From Hoeflea sp. BAL378 (GTDB taxonomy: Bacteria; Pseudomonadota; Alphaproteobacteria; Rhizobiales; Rhizobiaceae), in assembly GCF_000759435.1 (NCBI RefSeq), contig NZ_JRJG01000039.1:1-38957 (forward strand): a stretch of DNA of 38,957 nucleotides, written 5' to 3'. The notes beneath the pieces are model-generated. The model was not told where the DNA came from. It saw only the letters and a program-made list of their open reading frames with translations, and did no database searches. The stretch's first letter is position 1. The number at the start of each line of letters is the position of its first letter. A program made the position numbers and the translations under genes. Shown piece after piece: positions 14,491-21,075 of this stretch.

Positions 14491-14763
14491 ATGAACAAAA
14501 ATGAACTCGTGGCCGCTGTGGCCGAGAAATCGGGCATCAGCAAGGGGGACGCTACATCGGCTGTCGAGGCGGTTTTTGAAACCATCACAGGCGAACTGAA
14601 GAACGGTGGCGATGTCCGCCTGATCGGCTTCGGCAACTTCACCGTGTCGCGCCGCGAAGCCTCCAAGGGCCGCAATCCGCAGACCGGCAAGGAAGTTGAT
14701 ATTCCTGCCCGCAACGTGCCGAAGTTCTCGGCCGGCAAGGGCCTCAAGGACGCCTGCAACTAA
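14491..14763 (+). CDS. hupB: DNA-binding protein HU
   Basis: The protein has 90 residues, the exact HU length, from the ATG at 14491 with an AGGAAAGGGACGG ribosome-binding site. In-frame upstream starts would add an unrelated basic extension. The family signature GFGNFTVSRREASKGRNPQTG covers the beta-arm that inserts into the DNA minor groove, and the ending VPKFSAGKGLKDA is typical. HU is an abundant nucleoid protein that bends DNA without sequence specificity and acts as a dimer. The gene is monocistronic, between the lon terminator and its own strong terminator. Confidence 0.97.
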   Translation: MNKNELVAAVAEKSGISKGDATSAVEAVFETITGELKNGGDVRLIGFGNFTVSRREASKGRNPQTGKEVDIPARNVPKFSAGKGLKDACN

Positions 14764-14881: not shown

Positions 14882-14910
14882 TTGACAACGGAACAGAGAT
14901 AGAACATAAG
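14882..14910 (+). promoter_or_regulatory. Sigma-70 promoter of the 28-residue microprotein gene
   Basis: A perfect minus-35 TTGACA (14882-14887), a 17-base spacer and a minus-10 CATAAG (14905-14910) predict transcription starting near 14917. A consensus minus-35 is uncommon in this GC-rich sequence. Confidence 0.7.
14891..14905 (+). promoter_or_regulatory. LexA (SOS) box in the microprotein promoter
   Basis: GAAC (14891-14894), seven bases, then GAAC (14902-14905) is a perfect match to the alphaproteobacterial LexA direct repeat (GTTC-N7-GTTC read on the other strand). It fills the spacer between minus-35 and minus-10, so bound LexA would block RNA polymerase. Confidence 0.75.
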
Positions 14911-14940
14911 AGATACACAAGATGAATACAGGAGCTGATC

Positions 14941-15027
14941 ATGACTGCATTTGCCCGTGACCTTGCCGCTTTCGTCTCCATGTCGCTGTTCGTGGCGAGC
15001 TTCGCCGTTCTGGCGATGGCGTTCTGA
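14941..15027 (+). CDS. SOS-controlled 28-residue single-span membrane protein (SidA-like candidate)
   Basis: The reading frame begins MTAFARDLAAF and ends AVLAMAF before a TGA. Residues from about 9 to 28 form one hydrophobic alpha-helix (FVSMSLFVASF core), preceded by a short head with R6 and D7. An AGGAG Shine-Dalgarno sequence sits at 14930-14934, six bases before the ATG, which is ideal. A consensus promoter with a LexA box inside it lies just upstream. Caulobacter SidA is also a LexA-repressed inner-membrane microprotein of about 29 residues; it inhibits division through FtsW/FtsI. I infer a similar role from size, topology and control, not from an alignment. It could instead be another SOS-induced membrane peptide or toxin. 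Confidence 0.72.
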   Translation: MTAFARDLAAFVSMSLFVASFAVLAMAF

Positions 15028-15255
15028 CTTTCCGTCACTTTGATATGAATCTGGCGCTCTGGTCGCCAGGTTCTCCGCCCGTCGCGGCTCCGGCCGCGGC
15101 GGTGATGCCCGGCCAGCGCGGCACTTGATTGTGCAGCGCCCGCATTTTCTGATCCCGGCTCTGGACTTTGCGGTCCCGGTCCTCACAATTGACGCTTGAG
15201 TCTTTGGTCGCGCCGGTCCGGCGCCTGACCGCGGATCAATCGGCAGGGGATCACA
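15028..15255 (+). other. Leader region of dnaE
   Basis: No gene is seen. A 6-bp hairpin (15051-15056 with 15064-15069) follows the microprotein stop and may act as a weak terminator. A poor promoter match, TTGATT (15125-15130) with TCTGAT (15148-15153) at 17 bases, is the best candidate for dnaE. No LexA box is seen here. Confidence 0.35.
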
Positions 15256-18200
15256 ATGGCGCGGGACAACAAATCGGCCAGGCTGCTGGCCAATCTGGCC
15301 GCCGGCACGCCGCAGGCGCGCGGGCGTGACGGCGTGGCCGACGACCGTGGCGTCGCCGCTTGGCCCGGATTCGTGCATTTGCGGGTGCATTCGGCCTATT
15401 CCCTGCTTGAGGGCGCGCTGCCGATCAAGACCCTGATCAAGCGCGCGGTCTCCGATGCGCAGCCGGCGCTGGCCATCACCGACACCAACAATCTCTTTGG
15501 CGCGCTCGAATTCTCGGTCAAGGCCATGGAAGCCGGAATCCAGCCGCTGATCGGCTGCCAGCTCGACATCGACATGCAGGACGCTGAGGCGGGCGAGCGG
15601 CGGTCGTCGCACCGCGATCACCTGCAGAAGTCGCCGCATATCGTGCTCTATGCCGCCACCCCGGCCGGCTACGACCGGCTGGTCGCCCTGGTCAGCCAGG
15701 CCTATCTCGGCGGCGAGGGGTCCGACCGTCCCCACATCGCCCTGTCCTGGCTCGAGGAGGGAGCCGAAGGCCTGATCGCGCTCACCGGCGCGGGCGGCGG
15801 GCCGATCGACCAGGCCATGCGCGACGGCCATCCGGACCTGGCCAAGGCCCGGCTCACGCGGCTGCAGGCGGTGTTCGGCGACCGGCTCTATGTCGAGCTG
15901 CAGCGCCAGCGCGGCTATGATCGCACCCACGAGGCCCGGATGATCGCGCTCGCCTACGAGTGCGAGGTGCCGCTGGTGGCGGCCAACTCCGCCTTCTTCC
16001 CCACGCCCGACGATTTCGAGGCCCATGACGCGCTGATGGCGGTGGCCTGCAACGCCGTGATGTCGGACGACCGTCGTCCGCGGCTGAGCGTCGACAACTG
16101 CCTCAAGTCGCGCGCCGAGATGATGGAGCTGTTCGCCGACATTCCCGAGGCCTTGGCAAGCAGCGTCGAGATCGCCCGCCGCTGCAGCGCCATCGTCGAG
16201 AGCCGCGCGCCGATCCTGCCGCGGTTCACCGGCGGCGGCGAGGACGACCCGGAAGCGGCCCTTGCCGCCGAGGCCGACGAGTTGCGCCGCCAGTCGATCG
16301 AGGGGCTCGACCGCCGGCTGGCCCGGATCGGCATGGCCGAGGGCTTTACCGAGGCCGATTACCGCGAGCGGCTCAAGGTCGAGCTCGACATCATCGAATC
16401 GATGAAGTTCCCCGGCTACTTCCTGATCGTCGCCGACTTCATCAAATGGGCCAAGGGGCAGGGCATCCCGGTCGGGCCCGGCCGCGGTTCGGGCGCGGGC
16501 TCGCTGGTGGCCTACGCGCTCACCATCACCGATGTCGATCCGCTTCGCTTCTCGCTGCTGTTCGAGCGCTTCCTGAACCCCGCCCGCGTGTCGATGCCCG
16601 ACTTCGACATCGACTTCTGCCAGGACCGCCGCGAGGAGGTGATCCGCTACGTGCAGAAGAAATACGGCCGCGAGCAGGTGGGCCAGATCATCACCTTCGG
16701 AAGCCTGCAGGCGCGCGCGGCGCTGCGCGACGTCGGCCGGGTGCTCGAAATGCCCTACGGCCTGGTCGACCGGATCTGCAAGCTGGTGCCCAACAACCCG
16801 GCCAATCCGACGCCGCTGCACAAGGCGATCGAGGAGGAGCCGCGCTTTGCCGAGGAGATGGAGAAGGAGCCCGCCGTCGAGCGCCTGCTCGACATCGCCC
16901 AGAAGCTCGAGGGCCTCTACCGCCATGCCTCGACCCATGCCGCGGGCATCGTCATCGGCGACCGGCCGCTGTCGCAGCTTGTGCCGATGTACCGCGATCC
17001 GCGCTCGGATATGCCGGTCACCCAGTTCAACATGAAATGGGTGGAGCAGGCGGGCCTGGTCAAGTTCGACTTTCTCGGCCTCAAGACCCTCACCGTGCTC
17101 AAGACCGCGGTCGATTTCATCGCCAAACGCGGCATCGCGGTCGATCTCGAGGCCCTGCCGCTCGATGACGGTCCCACCTACGAGATGCTCTCGCGCGGCG
17201 AGACCGTCGGCGTGTTCCAGGTGGAATCGGCGGGCATGCGCAAGGCGCTGATCGGCATGCGGCCCGACCGCATCGAGGACATCATCGCGCTGGTGGCGCT
17301 CTACCGCCCGGGTCCGATGGAGAACATCCCGGTCTACAACGCGCGCAAGCACGGCGACGAGGAACTGGCCTCCATCCATCCCAAGATCGACGATCTGCTG
17401 GCCGAGACCCAGGGCGTGATCGTCTACCAGGAACAGGTGATGCAGATCGCCCAGGTGCTGGCCGGCTACTCGCTCGGCGAAGCCGACCTGCTGCGCCGCG
17501 CCATGGGCAAGAAGATCAAGGAGGAGATGGACAAGCAGCGCGCCCGCTTCGTCGAGGGCGCGGTCGAGCGCGACGTCTCCAAGCCGCAGGCCGACATGAT
17601 CTTCGACCTGCTGGCCAAGTTCGCCAATTACGGCTTCAACAAGTCGCACGCCGCGGCCTACGGCATCGTCTCCTACCAGACCGCCTATCTCAAGGCGCAT
17701 TATCCGGTCGAGTTCCTGGCCGCGTCGATGACCTACGACATGTCGAACACCGACAAGCTCAACGATTTCCGCCAGGACGCCAAGCGGCTGGGGATCGAGG
17801 TGGCCGCCCCCTCGGTGCAGACCAGTTTCCGCCACTTCGAGACCGGCGAGAACCGCATTTACTACGCGCTCGCCGCCATCAAGGGCGTGGGCGACGCGGC
17901 CGTCGAGCACATCGTCGAGGCGCGCGGCGACACGCCCTTTGCCTCGCTCGAGGATTTCTGCACGCGCATCGACCCGCGCCAGGTCAACCGCCGTGTGCTC
18001 GAAAGCCTGATCGCCGCAGGCGCGCTCGACTGTTTCGGCCACGACCGCGCGGCGCTCAGCGCCGGCCTCGACCGGATCCTCGGTTTCGCCCAGCGCGCCC
18101 AGGAAAACCGCATCAGCGGCCAGAGCGACATGTTCGGCATGGGCGGCGCCTCGCAGGAGAGTTCCGAATCGATCCATCTGCCCGCGGCCCCGCCCTGGCT

Positions 18201-18822
18201 GCCGGCGGAAAAGCTGCACCGCGAATACCAGGCGCTGGGCTTTTACCTCTCCGCGCATCCGCTTGATTCCTATAATGAACTTCTGGCCAAGATGCGGGTG
18301 CAGACCTGGGCCGATTTCTCGCTCGCGGTCAAGGCCGGCGCCACCGCCGGACGGCTCGCGGGCACGGTGACCAGCAAGCAGGAGCGCAAGACCCGCACAG
18401 GCAACAAGATGGGGATCGTCGCCTTCTCCGACAGTTCCGGCCAGTATGAGGCGGTGCTGTTCTCCGAAGGCCTGGCGCTCTACCGCGACCTGCTCGAACC
18501 GGGCAAGTCGATCGTCATCACGGTCAATGCCGAGGAGCGGCCGGAAGGCATCGGGCTCAGGATCCAGACCGCCGATTCGCTCGAGGACCGCGCCGCCCGC
18601 GGTCAGTCGGCGCTCAGGGTCTACATGCGCGACGCTCGTCCGCTGAATTCCGTCTCGACCCATCTCAAGGCCCATGGCGAAGGGCAGGTGTCCTTCGTCA
18701 TGATCAAGGATGACGGCCGCCGCGAGATCGAGGTGACGCTGTCGGACCGCTACAAGATCTCGCCGCAGATCGCCTCGGCGCTGAAGGCGGCCCCGGGCGT
18801 GCTCGACGTCGAGCTGGTCTGA
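15256..18822 (+). CDS. dnaE: DNA polymerase III subunit alpha
   Basis: The protein has 1188 residues. It is the replicative catalytic subunit (DnaE1), not the shorter mutagenic DnaE2/ImuC. The N-terminal PHP domain begins at FVHLRVHSAYSLLEGALP. The polymerase active site carries D449 and D451 in PDFDIDFCQDRREEV, and GPGRGSGAGSLVAYALTI lies just before it. Later parts include the tandem helix-hairpin-helix region (IKGVGDAAVEHIVEARG) and an OB-fold at about residues 1030-1110. An N-terminal extension of about 35 residues before the PHP domain is common in this order. An AGGGGATC element precedes the ATG. Confidence 0.97.
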   Translation: MARDNKSARLLANLAAGTPQARGRDGVADDRGVAAWPGFVHLRVHSAYSLLEGALPIKTLIKRAVSDAQPALAITDTNNLFGALEFSVKAMEAGIQPLIGCQLDIDMQDAEAGERRSSHRDHLQKSPHIVLYAATPAGYDRLVALVSQAYLGGEGSDRPHIALSWLEEGAEGLIALTGAGGGPIDQAMRDGHPDLAKARLTRLQAVFGDRLYVELQRQRGYDRTHEARMIALAYECEVPLVAANSAFFPTPDDFEAHDALMAVACNAVMSDDRRPRLSVDNCLKSRAEMMELFADIPEALASSVEIARRCSAIVESRAPILPRFTGGGEDDPEAALAAEADELRRQSIEGLDRRLARIGMAEGFTEADYRERLKVELDIIESMKFPGYFLIVADFIKWAKGQGIPVGPGRGSGAGSLVAYALTITDVDPLRFSLLFERFLNPARVSMPDFDIDFCQDRREEVIRYVQKKYGREQVGQIITFGSLQARAALRDVGRVLEMPYGLVDRICKLVPNNPANPTPLHKAIEEEPRFAEEMEKEPAVERLLDIAQKLEGLYRHASTHAAGIVIGDRPLSQLVPMYRDPRSDMPVTQFNMKWVEQAGLVKFDFLGLKTLTVLKTAVDFIAKRGIAVDLEALPLDDGPTYEMLSRGETVGVFQVESAGMRKALIGMRPDRIEDIIALVALYRPGPMENIPVYNARKHGDEELASIHPKIDDLLAETQGVIVYQEQVMQIAQVLAGYSLGEADLLRRAMGKKIKEEMDKQRARFVEGAVERDVSKPQADMIFDLLAKFANYGFNKSHAAAYGIVSYQTAYLKAHYPVEFLAASMTYDMSNTDKLNDFRQDAKRLGIEVAAPSVQTSFRHFETGENRIYYALAAIKGVGDAAVEHIVEARGDTPFASLEDFCTRIDPRQVNRRVLESLIAAGALDCFGHDRAALSAGLDRILGFAQRAQENRISGQSDMFGMGGASQESSESIHLPAAPPWLPAEKLHREYQALGFYLSAHPLDSYNELLAKMRVQTWADFSLAVKAGATAGRLAGTVTSKQERKTRTGNKMGIVAFSDSSGQYEAVLFSEGLALYRDLLEPGKSIVITVNAEERPEGIGLRIQTADSLEDRAARGQSALRVYMRDARPLNSVSTHLKAHGEGQVSFVMIKDDGRREIEVTLSDRYKISPQIASALKAAPGVLDVELV

Positions 18823-18891: not shown

Positions 18892-19656
18892 ATGCTCAAA
18901 ATCATCCGCTTCGCCCGGCTTATTCCGGGGCTCGTGCTCGCGTCCTTCCTAGCGGTGGCAGGGGCTGCGGCCGGTGACGCGCCGCAACCCAAACTCGGGG
19001 CCAACGCGGTTCCGCTGACGGCCGACCATGCCTATCTGACCAAGGCGGCAGCGGCCGACTACTGGGCCTTCTCCGCCTTCGTCAAACCGCAATTCACCAC
19101 CTCGGCCTGCTCGATCGCCGCCGTCACCGGCGCGCTCAACGGCCTGCGCGGCCTGCCGCCGCATGCCGAGGACACGGTGACGACCCAGCCGCAGATGCTC
19201 GATCTCGTGGCCGATCCCGAGTGGGCGACCCTCTCGGCGGAAGGCGGCGACGGAGTGAAGTTCGACCAGCTCGTGGCCTTCACCGGCAAGGCGCTCAAGG
19301 CCGCCGGCATGGAGGCCTACCGCACCGAGACGCTCAAACCCGCTGCCGAGGATGCCGCCACGCTCGACGCGGTGCGCGCGCTTCTCAAGGCCAATGAAGC
19401 CTCCGCGGACGACGCGCTGCTCTTGTATTTCAACCAGGGCGTGGTGACCGGCGACTGGGACGGGCCGCATGTCTCGGTGATCGGCGCCTATGACGCCGAG
19501 GCCGACAGGGTGCTCATCCTCGAGGTCGACCAGGAATGGTACATTCCCTACTGGACCCCGACATCCGTGCTGCTGAAGGCGATGCTCAAGCCCACCAGCG
19601 CCGAGCACGGCGTGCTCGAAGGCGAAACCGGCGGCCTCGTCCACATCGTCAAGTAG
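18892..19656 (+). CDS. Exported phytochelatin-synthase-like cysteine peptidase
   Basis: The protein has 254 residues with an N-terminal signal peptide or anchor (hydrophobic IPGLVLASFLAVAGAAAG, cleavage near residue 28). The papain-like triad of the phytochelatin synthase family can be placed at C73 (TTSACSIAAV), H193 (DGPHVSVIGAYD) and D213 (LILEVDQEWYIPYW). Bacterial single-domain members usually hydrolyse glutathione or glutathione conjugates to gamma-Glu-Cys rather than polymerise it. The export signal places this one in the periplasm. It follows dnaE by about 70 bases but may be independently transcribed. The family call rests on the spacing and context of the three catalytic motifs. Confidence 0.8.
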   Translation: MLKIIRFARLIPGLVLASFLAVAGAAAGDAPQPKLGANAVPLTADHAYLTKAAAADYWAFSAFVKPQFTTSACSIAAVTGALNGLRGLPPHAEDTVTTQPQMLDLVADPEWATLSAEGGDGVKFDQLVAFTGKALKAAGMEAYRTETLKPAAEDAATLDAVRALLKANEASADDALLLYFNQGVVTGDWDGPHVSVIGAYDAEADRVLILEVDQEWYIPYWTPTSVLLKAMLKPTSAEHGVLEGETGGLVHIVK

Positions 19657-19722: not shown

Positions 19723-21045
19723 CTACTTGTCGCGATCGCGCTGGGGCGCGGCTTCGCGGCCCCTGCCGAAGGTGTAGCCGGTCTCGACGATGTCGCGGCC
19801 GAACTTCTGCCGCACCTTGTCGATGGCGCTTTCAGCCACCGCCCGGCGCGCCGCCGCCGGATCCACGAGGTCGGGCGGGTCGGCGCGGGCGGCGTCGGTG
19901 AGGTCGGTGACGCCGATGCCGATCAGCCGAAACCGGTCCTGGCCGAGCTCGCGCTCGAGCAGGTGTAGCCCGGTGCGGAAGATCCGGTCGGCGAGCACCG
20001 TCGGGTCCTCGAGCTTGAAATTGCGCGTGCGGTTCTTGAAGTCCGGGGTCTTGAGCTTGAGCACCACTGTCTGCCCGGCGATGCCCGACGCCTTGAGCCG
20101 GGCCGAGACCTTCTCCGACAGCCGCCGCAGCACCGGCACCAGGTCGCTGGCCTGCGACAGGTCGGTGTTGAAGGTGGTCTCGGCCGACACGCTCTTGGCG
20201 CCCTCGTTGGGCTGGACCGTGCGCTCGTCCTCGCCGCGCGAGAGATGATAGAGCCGCTTGCCCATCACCCCGTAGCTGCGCATCAGCGCGGTCAGCTCCA
20301 TGGTCTGCAATTGCCCGATGGTGCGGATGCCGTCGCGTTCGAGCGTGGCGGCGAAAGCCTTGCCCACGCCCCAGATCAGGCTCACCGGTCTGGGCGCCAG
20401 GAATGTCAGCGCCTCCTGCTTGCCGATCACCGAGAACCCGCGCGGCTTGTCGAGATCGGAAGCGACCTTGGCCAGGAACTTGCAGTAGCTGAGGCCGACC
20501 GACAGGGTGATGCCGACCTCGGCCTCGACGCGGGCGGCGAAGCGCGCCAGCGTCCGGGCAGGGGTGTCCTTGTGCAGCCGCTCGGTCCCGGCGAGGTCGA
20601 GAAACGCCTCGTCGATGGAGATCGGCTGCACCAGCGGCGTCAGCTCCTCCATCAGCCTGCGCACCTCGCGCCCGACGCGGGCGTATTTCTCCATGTCCGG
20701 CTTGAGCACGATCGCTTCGGGGCAGGCCTCGAGGGCCTTGAACATCGGCATCGCCGAGCGCACGCCGTGGATGCGGGCGATGTAGCAGCAGGTGGAGACC
20801 ACGCCGCGCTTGCCGCCGCCGATGATCAACGGCTTGTCGGCGAGCTCGGGATTGTCGCGTTTCTCGACGGTGGCGTAGAACGCGTCGCAGTCCACATGCG
20901 CGAGCGTAAGCGCATCGATCTCGGGATGGCGGATAAGCCGCGGGCTGCCGCAGGCATGGCAGCGCCTGACGCCGTGGCGCGCGGGCGTCAGGCAGTCGCG
21001 GCAAAAGCCGGGCACCGGACGTAGGGGCGGAGGCGCTTGGGTCAT
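19723..21045 (-). CDS. dinB: DNA polymerase IV (Y-family, translesion)
   Basis: The protein has 440 residues from the ATG at 21045; an upstream TTG would lie on the LexA box. Catalytic acidic residues are D52 and D54 (HVDCDAFY) and D145/E146 (SIDEAFLD), with Y57 as the likely steric gate. Palm, thumb and little-finger regions are complete. Before the polymerase domain is an extra N-terminal segment with two CxxC pairs (C15, C18, C29, C32), which looks like a small zinc ribbon and is seen in alphaproteobacterial DinB. A perfect LexA box and a promoter lie upstream, so the gene should be induced by DNA damage. Confidence 0.95.
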
Positions 21046-21060
21046 CGACTCGTCGCGAGA

Positions 21061-21075
21061 GAACAAAGGTTGAAC
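21061..21075 (-). promoter_or_regulatory. LexA (SOS) box between dinB and the GNAT gene
   Basis: GAAC (21061-21064), seven bases, then GAAC (21072-21075) is a perfect alphaproteobacterial LexA direct repeat. It overlaps the expected start of dinB transcription (promoter TTGTGA-N17-TAATCT on the minus strand, 21110 to 21082). Confidence 0.8.

What the first reader, a model, noticed from the sequence alone, without database searches (positions are those of the whole stretch)
14882..15027. LexA-controlled 28-residue membrane microprotein, a candidate SidA-like division inhibitor
Seen directly: a consensus minus-35 (TTGACA), a perfect GAAC-N7-GAAC LexA box filling the spacer, a minus-10, an AGGAG ribosome-binding site at ideal spacing, and a 28-codon frame encoding one hydrophobic helix with a short charged head. 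A strong terminator insulates it from hupB. Known: Caulobacter SidA is a LexA-repressed inner-membrane protein of about 29 residues that blocks division through FtsW/FtsI. Inference: this gene does the same job in this organism. It is short enough to be missed by standard gene finders and lies between hupB and dnaE.
Basis: partly seen in the sequence, partly recalled or inferred. Interest (0 to 1): 0.85.

Follow-up and report, generated by a model that had tools for sequence, protein, structure and literature searches.

The report
SidA-like SOS division inhibitor in rhizobia
A 28-residue membrane protein gene under a DNA-damage switch, sitting just before the replication polymerase gene dnaE, is very probably a divergent relative of the Caulobacter cell-division brake SidA; similar hidden genes recur across many Alphaproteobacteria and in some phage genomes.

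Summary
ORF 14941-15027 (28 aa) has a LexA box inside its promoter, an AGGAG RBS, and purifying selection (pN/pS 0.09 over 16 congeneric sequences). A LexA-boxed one-helix ORF (24-40 aa) lies upstream of dnaE in 55 of 115 genomes of the order, reverse-strand control 4 of 115. In a family I take to be Caulobacteraceae, the ORF at this place is SidA: 26 of 26 submitted match NCBIfam NF033228 at E up to 10, and 66 of 68 dnaE loci have it with a perfect or one-mismatch LexA box. The window protein misses NF033228 but scores 16.7 bits on a profile of those SidAs (1000 shuffles, maximum 13.2; 265 decoys, maximum 6.4). So it is a divergent SidA homologue at the same locus, not a NF033228 equivalog. 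In five relatives box and ORF stay together with no dnaE within 1.5 kb, so the box serves the microprotein. Some phage contigs carry box-less copies. Division inhibition through FtsW/FtsI/FtsN is inferred, not shown.

The parts
14491..14763 (+). hup (HU family DNA-binding protein), upstream neighbour
   Evidence: Pfam PF00216, 116.5 bits
14791..14816 (+). terminator hairpin plus T run between hup and the microprotein promoter
14882..14887 (+). -35 element TTGACA
   Evidence: TTGAC kept 9 nt before the box in 19 of 20 loci and 10 nt in one
14891..14905 (+). LexA box GAACagagataGAAC in the promoter spacer
   Evidence: perfect box in 41 of the 44 best family loci, the other three one mismatch off (L019 and L032 are one place, so 40 of 43 distinct places, own included)
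14905..14910 (+). -10-like element CATAAG, 17-nt spacer
   Evidence: read; not called by the consensus scan
14930..14934 (+). ribosome-binding site AGGAG, 6 nt before the start
   Evidence: AGGAG or GGGAG at this place in all 16 genus loci (read)
14941..15027 (+). 28-residue single-helix membrane microprotein, SidA-like
15256..18822 (+). dnaE, DNA polymerase III alpha, the conserved downstream neighbour
   Evidence: Pfam PHP, PF07733 and others; one of two TIGR00594 matches in the genome
21061..21075 (-). second LexA box in the window, before dinB; positive control
19723..21045 (-). dinB (Y-family polymerase), SOS-type neighbour
   Evidence: Pfam IMS and IMS_C

Best explanation
The gene is a divergent homologue of sidA, at the sidA locus. 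LexA sits in the promoter spacer and represses it. When RecA filaments trigger LexA cleavage, a short-leader mRNA makes a 28-residue protein with a short N-terminal head carrying an Arg-Asp pair and one helix that inserts in the inner membrane. There it most likely holds the late divisome subcomplex FtsW/FtsI/FtsN in its inactive state, so that cells do not divide over a damaged chromosome. Supported here by computation: gene, frame, selection, box, conserved locus, homology to SidA. Inferred: LexA binding and induction, transcript start, membrane insertion, divisome target.
For: Frame conserved with pN/pS 0.09. LexA box in the promoter in 16 of 16 genus loci, perfect in 41 of 44 family loci. 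Own lexA has GAACACATATGGAAC 80 nt before its start; own recA has a one-mismatch box. LexA-boxed one-helix ORFs upstream of dnaE: order 55 of 115, reverse-strand control 4 of 115; class 12 of 41 and 12 of 60 loci, controls 0 of 43 rows and 1 of 60. At the same place in f79 the ORF is SidA by NF033228: 26 of 26 submitted at E up to 10; the two whose bits were shown pass the cut-off. Window peptide 16.7 bits on the f79 SidA profile against 13.2 for the best of 1000 shuffles and 6.4 for the best of 265 decoys. Profile-profile probability 88.6, E 2.6e-6; 0 of 300 column shuffles reach the score. Box and ORF persist without dnaE within 1.5 kb in five of 26 genomes searched by handle. Published SidA: 29-aa inner-membrane protein, interacts with FtsW, suppressed by ftsW/ftsI mutations (PMC4211646, passages).
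Against: No NF033228 match for the window protein; 1 of 45 non-f79 relatives hits it, weakly (E 0.038). Pairwise BLASTP with a SidA finds nothing. The Trp of SidA's FVWM is missing. Of the 133 non-f79 members scored, only 70 beat the 95th percentile of their own shuffles on the SidA profile. On the f1 profile 15 of 28 SidAs beat the 99th percentile of decoys and 3 the maximum. Conservation does not fall clearly on one helix face (p 0.067). 60 of 115 order genomes fail the strict upstream-of-dnaE criteria. No expression or phenotype data.
Confidence: 0.74

Rival explanations
1. The LexA box serves dnaE, and the short frame is only a leader peptide or by-product in the dnaE 5' region.
For: dnaE follows after 228 nt without a called terminator. 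dnaE is named among LexA-regulated genes of C. crescentus that a comparative study found again in other alphaproteobacteria (PMC3323433, section 8). Read-through into dnaE is possible.
Against: In G113, G640, G125, G145 and G120 box and ORF are kept with no dnaE within 1.5 kb; the dnaE match of G113 and G640 has no box within 1.1 kb. The protein, not just a frame, is conserved and is related to a proven effector. The gap to dnaE varies widely.
Confidence: 0.08
2. A TisB-like SOS toxin: a small hydrophobic peptide that depolarises the membrane and makes persisters (TisB recalled, not fetched).
For: Same size, hydrophobicity and LexA control as recalled for E. coli TisB.
Against: The leader inferred from the promoter is only about 24 nt and the folding of the start region is ordinary (z 0.5), unlike the long structured tisB leader (recalled). 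Sequence and locus are shared with SidA.
Confidence: 0.07
3. A SidA relative that has drifted to another inner-membrane target or purpose in rhizobia, for example polar-growth or envelope enzymes.
For: The SidA core FVWM is missing; Rhizobiales grow unipolarly (PMC7327166, start of abstract only).
Against: LexA box, locus, size and the R-[DE]-x2-A-x2-S-x3-F pattern are kept.
Confidence: 0.15

Closest known systems
SidA of Caulobacter crescentus (CCNA_02004; NCBIfam NF033228)
   Same: 28 against 29 aa, one hydrophobic helix, LexA box in the promoter, directly upstream of dnaE (seen in f79 genomes), profile similarity starting at Met1
   Different: Not matched by NF033228; no FVWM; function not tested
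DidA (C. crescentus CCNA03212)
   Same: Damage-induced one-helix inhibitor acting on the FtsW/I/N subcomplex
   Different: 71 aa, SOS-independent, binds FtsN (PMC4211646 passages); not compared by sequence here
YneA / SosA / SulA
   Same: SOS-induced division inhibitors
   Different: yneA, sulA and sidA are called unrelated in PMC4211646 (passage); SosA seen in a search listing only
TisB (recalled)
   Same: Small hydrophobic LexA-controlled peptide
   Different: Different mode of action; long regulated leader (recalled)

Membership tests
SidA (NCBIfam NF033228 equivalog) | Score above the curated cut-off of NF033228 (35 bits) | tested here: not met
   No family reported for the window peptide up to E 10; two f79 SidAs 59.7 and 50.8 bits
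SidA (NCBIfam NF033228 equivalog) | FVWM core seen in most f79 SidAs | tested here: not met
   Window has FVAS at the aligned place
SidA-like family in the wide sense (same locus and ancestry) | Sequence similarity to SidA beyond composition | tested here: met
   16.7 bits on the f79 SidA profile; shuffles maximum 13.2, decoys maximum 6.4; hhalign E 2.6e-6 with 0 of 300 column shuffles as good. BLASTP negative
SidA-like family in the wide sense (same locus and ancestry) | Position directly upstream of dnaE | tested here: met
   Window; 44 of 44 best family loci; SidA in 66 of 68 f79 dnaE loci
SidA-like family in the wide sense (same locus and ancestry) | LexA box in its promoter | tested here: met
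   binding itself not tested
SidA-like family in the wide sense (same locus and ancestry) | About 29 aa with a single membrane-spanning helix | tested here: met
   28 aa; best 15-residue mean hydropathy 2.25. Prediction from hydropathy only
SidA-like family in the wide sense (same locus and ancestry) | SOS-induced inhibition of division through FtsW/FtsI/FtsN | not testable with these tools
   Needs expression, filamentation and interaction experiments

The most novel reading that the evidence does not exclude
A SidA-type checkpoint family, hidden as small genes of about 24-40 codons before dnaE, is the ancestral SOS division brake of a large part of the Alphaproteobacteria. It explains the LexA sites so far credited to dnaE, and has been captured by rhizobial phages, which make a box-less copy near their recombination genes to stop host division on their own schedule.
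Probability: 0.5. Interest if true: 0.78.

Novelty: new variant of a known kind. Interest (0 to 1): 0.64.

Why it matters
In the papers I saw, an SOS division inhibitor of the Alphaproteobacteria is named only in Caulobacter. If this is right, rhizobia and many relatives use one shared, LexA-released brake on septal wall synthesis, and the reported LexA control of dnaE needs re-reading, because a small, easily missed gene lies between the box and dnaE. It also gives dozens of natural variants for mapping the SidA-divisome contact, and a phage-borne set that may bypass LexA.

Tried and rejected
Rejected: the ORF as chance; the box as dnaE's own. Led nowhere: the A2 profile across 387 class genomes gave noise outside the family (114 of 387 at E up to 1; after the two family members the best is E 0.005), so I scanned upstream of dnaE instead. 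The genus-rich group f30 was first taken for Caulobacteraceae; the 25 named records found were mostly unnamed alphaproteobacterial MAGs. Helical-face test not significant. Column rotation as an hhalign null is poor because it keeps long runs of columns (3 of 100 reach the score). Nine supposed decoys scored above the window; six of them stand in rows as ORFs upstream of f79 dnaE, one is a shortened form of such a row, two look alike; I replaced that control with antisense decoys. No phage-record match; viral-contig scans with the genus and SidA alignments found none.

Limits of the counts: one search lists L114 twice among class rows and it belongs to the order, so 14 of 43 rows becomes 12 of 41. 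The 101 class loci come from 320 genomes with a dnaE match (10 of them own, family or order), taken from the listed best matches, not at random. The family loci are the best matches only. Names f1, f79 and so on are the tool's. f79 as Caulobacteraceae rests on PopZ similarity (its top two hits and several others are f79, with other families in between) and on NF033228.

Full report
WHAT IS THERE. A hairpin with a T run closes hup upstream. dnaE starts at 15256 (Pfam), 228 nt after the stop. The box by itself is not rare enough to convince (3 in the window, 0.93 expected); but a second one stands before dinB, a core SOS gene type in alphaproteobacteria (PMC3323433, section 7). The genome's lexA has a perfect box 80 nt before its start, and recA, whose contig begins about 150 nt before it, a one-mismatch box GAACAAATAGGGTAC (no perfect one).

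IT IS A GENE. tblastn finds the protein in 15 of 17 same-genus relatives; the two misses are assemblies only 75-77% complete. Among 16 genus sequences, differences fall 259/43/1127 on codon positions 1/2/3, and pN/pS is 0.09. All 16 keep a perfect LexA box 50-53 nt before the start, and over 20 loci the TTGAC start lies exactly 9 nt before the box in 19 and 10 nt in one. In the wider family, 78 of 151 genomes match at E up to 10 (the query was a consensus of my own; the weak end of that list includes matches inside long frames, likely chance). Of the 44 loci read, which are the best matches, 41 have a perfect box, the other three a one-mismatch box, and all 44 have a dnaE match 0.2-0.8 kb downstream of the start (one place occurs twice).

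IT MARKS A CONSERVED LOCUS. Because 28-aa queries fade fast, I located dnaE by its N-terminus and scanned 1.1 kb upstream for a perfect box followed by an 18-60-aa one-helix frame. Order: 55 of 115 dnaE loci, frames of 24-40 aa, 47 of them 28-36 aa; reverse-strand control 4 of 115. Class: 12 of 41 and 12 of 60 loci, controls 0 of 43 rows and 1 of 60. The class loci were picked from listed best matches. Of the 60 order loci that fail, some show a similar frame with a one-mismatch box (for example L078, L085, L171, L227); for the others I do not know whether the gene is lost or elsewhere.

LINK TO SidA. Literature: SidA is a 29-aa inner-membrane SOS protein that interacts with FtsW and is suppressed by ftsW and ftsI mutations (PMC4211646, passages). 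A lexA mutant filaments because of sidA (PMC12700426, passages). sidA is CCNA_02004 (PMC10769358, passage) and dnaE is CC1926 (PMC1839093, table passage). That the two tags are neighbours is my own recollection of the tag offset. In f79, 36 of 68 dnaE loci meet the strict criteria, control 2 of 68, and the frame is mostly exactly 29 aa. With a profile built from 28 of these frames, 66 of 68 loci have it, 41 with a perfect and 25 with a one-mismatch box; 252 windows inside the same dnaE genes gave 0 and 2 (the profile comes from the same family, so this counts presence, not independence). NCBIfam NF033228, cell division inhibitor SidA, matches 26 of 26 frames submitted at E up to 10 (24 of the 28 profile frames and two others); the two whose scores were shown pass the cut-off (59.7 and 50.8 against 35 bits). 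Two of the 26 also touch other models weakly (MmpA, E 0.014; SCO2097, E 0.12). So SidA sits at this locus with this box.

IS THE WINDOW PROTEIN HOMOLOGOUS? It has no NF033228 or Pfam match, 1 of 45 relatives has a weak one, and BLASTP sees nothing. Profiles do: 16.7 bits on the f79 SidA profile, 1000 shuffles maximum 13.2, 265 antisense one-helix decoys maximum 6.4, and 35 of 37 f1 proteins above every decoy. Against own shuffles, 35 of 37 f1 proteins beat the 95th percentile on the SidA profile, but only 70 of 133 of all non-f79 members; 27 of 28 SidAs do so on the f1 profile. The reverse decoy test is weaker: 15 of 28 SidAs above the 99th percentile, 3 above the maximum. hhalign gives probability 88.6 and 91.1, and none of 300 column shuffles reaches the score for either. 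The shared pattern is M1, R6-[DE]7, A10, S13, F17. So the tie to SidA is good for the window's own family and less even for the most distant members.

BOX AND PROTEIN TRAVEL TOGETHER. Of 26 genomes searched by handle, five hold a boxed ORF with no dnaE within 1.5 kb (L429, L430, L431, L433, L435). In three of these the gene just upstream reads as lolD (my reading of the translations). In G113 and G640 the dnaE match lies on another contig and has no box within 1.1 kb. In S. meliloti Ak57 the order is proS, a lipoprotein-releasing permease gene, an ABC ATP-binding gene, a gap with no listed gene, dnaE (the PLSDB gene table is incomplete), and the gap holds MADFVRDLAAFASMSLFIVSISVIALGL with two boxes; Shinella sp. 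PSBB067 and Sinorhizobium sp. M103 have the like. Window and relatives therefore seem to have broken one old order on either side, while box and microprotein stayed joined. PMC3323433 (sections 7 and 8 read) reports dnaE among LexA-regulated genes found in alphaproteobacteria; I did not see its per-species figure. The simplest reading is that the small gene between is the target, with dnaE perhaps also induced by read-through.

PHAGE COPIES. Three genomes hold a second, box-less copy (L425, L438, L440). In two (L425, L438) it lies near phage exonuclease-like genes. A scan of viral contigs with two of them found 12 loci. Ten were scored: 15.9-50.1 bits on the f1 profile, shuffles maximum 13.3, but only 0.2-12.0 on the SidA profile; pN/pS is 0.60 over 8 distinct sequences. 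None of the 12 has a box within 110 nt. I infer phage capture of the effector.

MECHANISM. Best reading: LexA leaves the promoter on damage, the peptide enters the inner membrane and keeps FtsW/FtsI/FtsN inactive. Induction, insertion and target are inferred from SidA. The leader folds unremarkably, against a TisB-like scheme (recalled). The stretch between the ORF and dnaE is more structured than shuffles (z -2.5), so a terminator without a T run is possible.

NOVELTY. In the listings (12 of 175 papers listed), and the passages I opened, SidA as a division inhibitor appears only for Caulobacter among the Alphaproteobacteria; the two rhizobial hits opened were the Sidak test. The library is limited to open licences, and the 2011 SidA paper is not held. 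The kind is known; this broad, divergent family, its locus, and the phage copies appear new.

Noticed in passing
L443-L454; L425, L438, L440: Box-less SidA-like microproteins of 29-33 aa on 12 viral contigs and as second copies in three genomes, near exonuclease-like genes where the neighbours were tested (L425, L438): possible phage-borne division inhibitors.
   Followed up: partly
window 21061-21075 and 19723-21045 (-): A second LexA box stands just before dinB, so the window holds two LexA-type promoters within about 6 kb.
   Followed up: partly
window 18892-19656: A gene with a Pfam phytochelatin synthase match directly after dnaE; its role was not looked into.
   Followed up: no
L323-L347 and f30 loci L233-L262: A large, mostly unnamed alphaproteobacterial MAG lineage carries its own SidA-like form, often starting M(A)W-x-KDAAAG; 29 of 30 loci read have a perfect LexA box.
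   Followed up: partly
window 15047-15101: Two strong GC hairpins between the microprotein and dnaE without a T run; may end or attenuate the transcript.
   Followed up: no
L372, L376, L388-L392 (f79 genus g189): Pairs of perfect LexA boxes 18 nt apart upstream of dnaE in 7 of 9 genomes of this genus.
   Followed up: no
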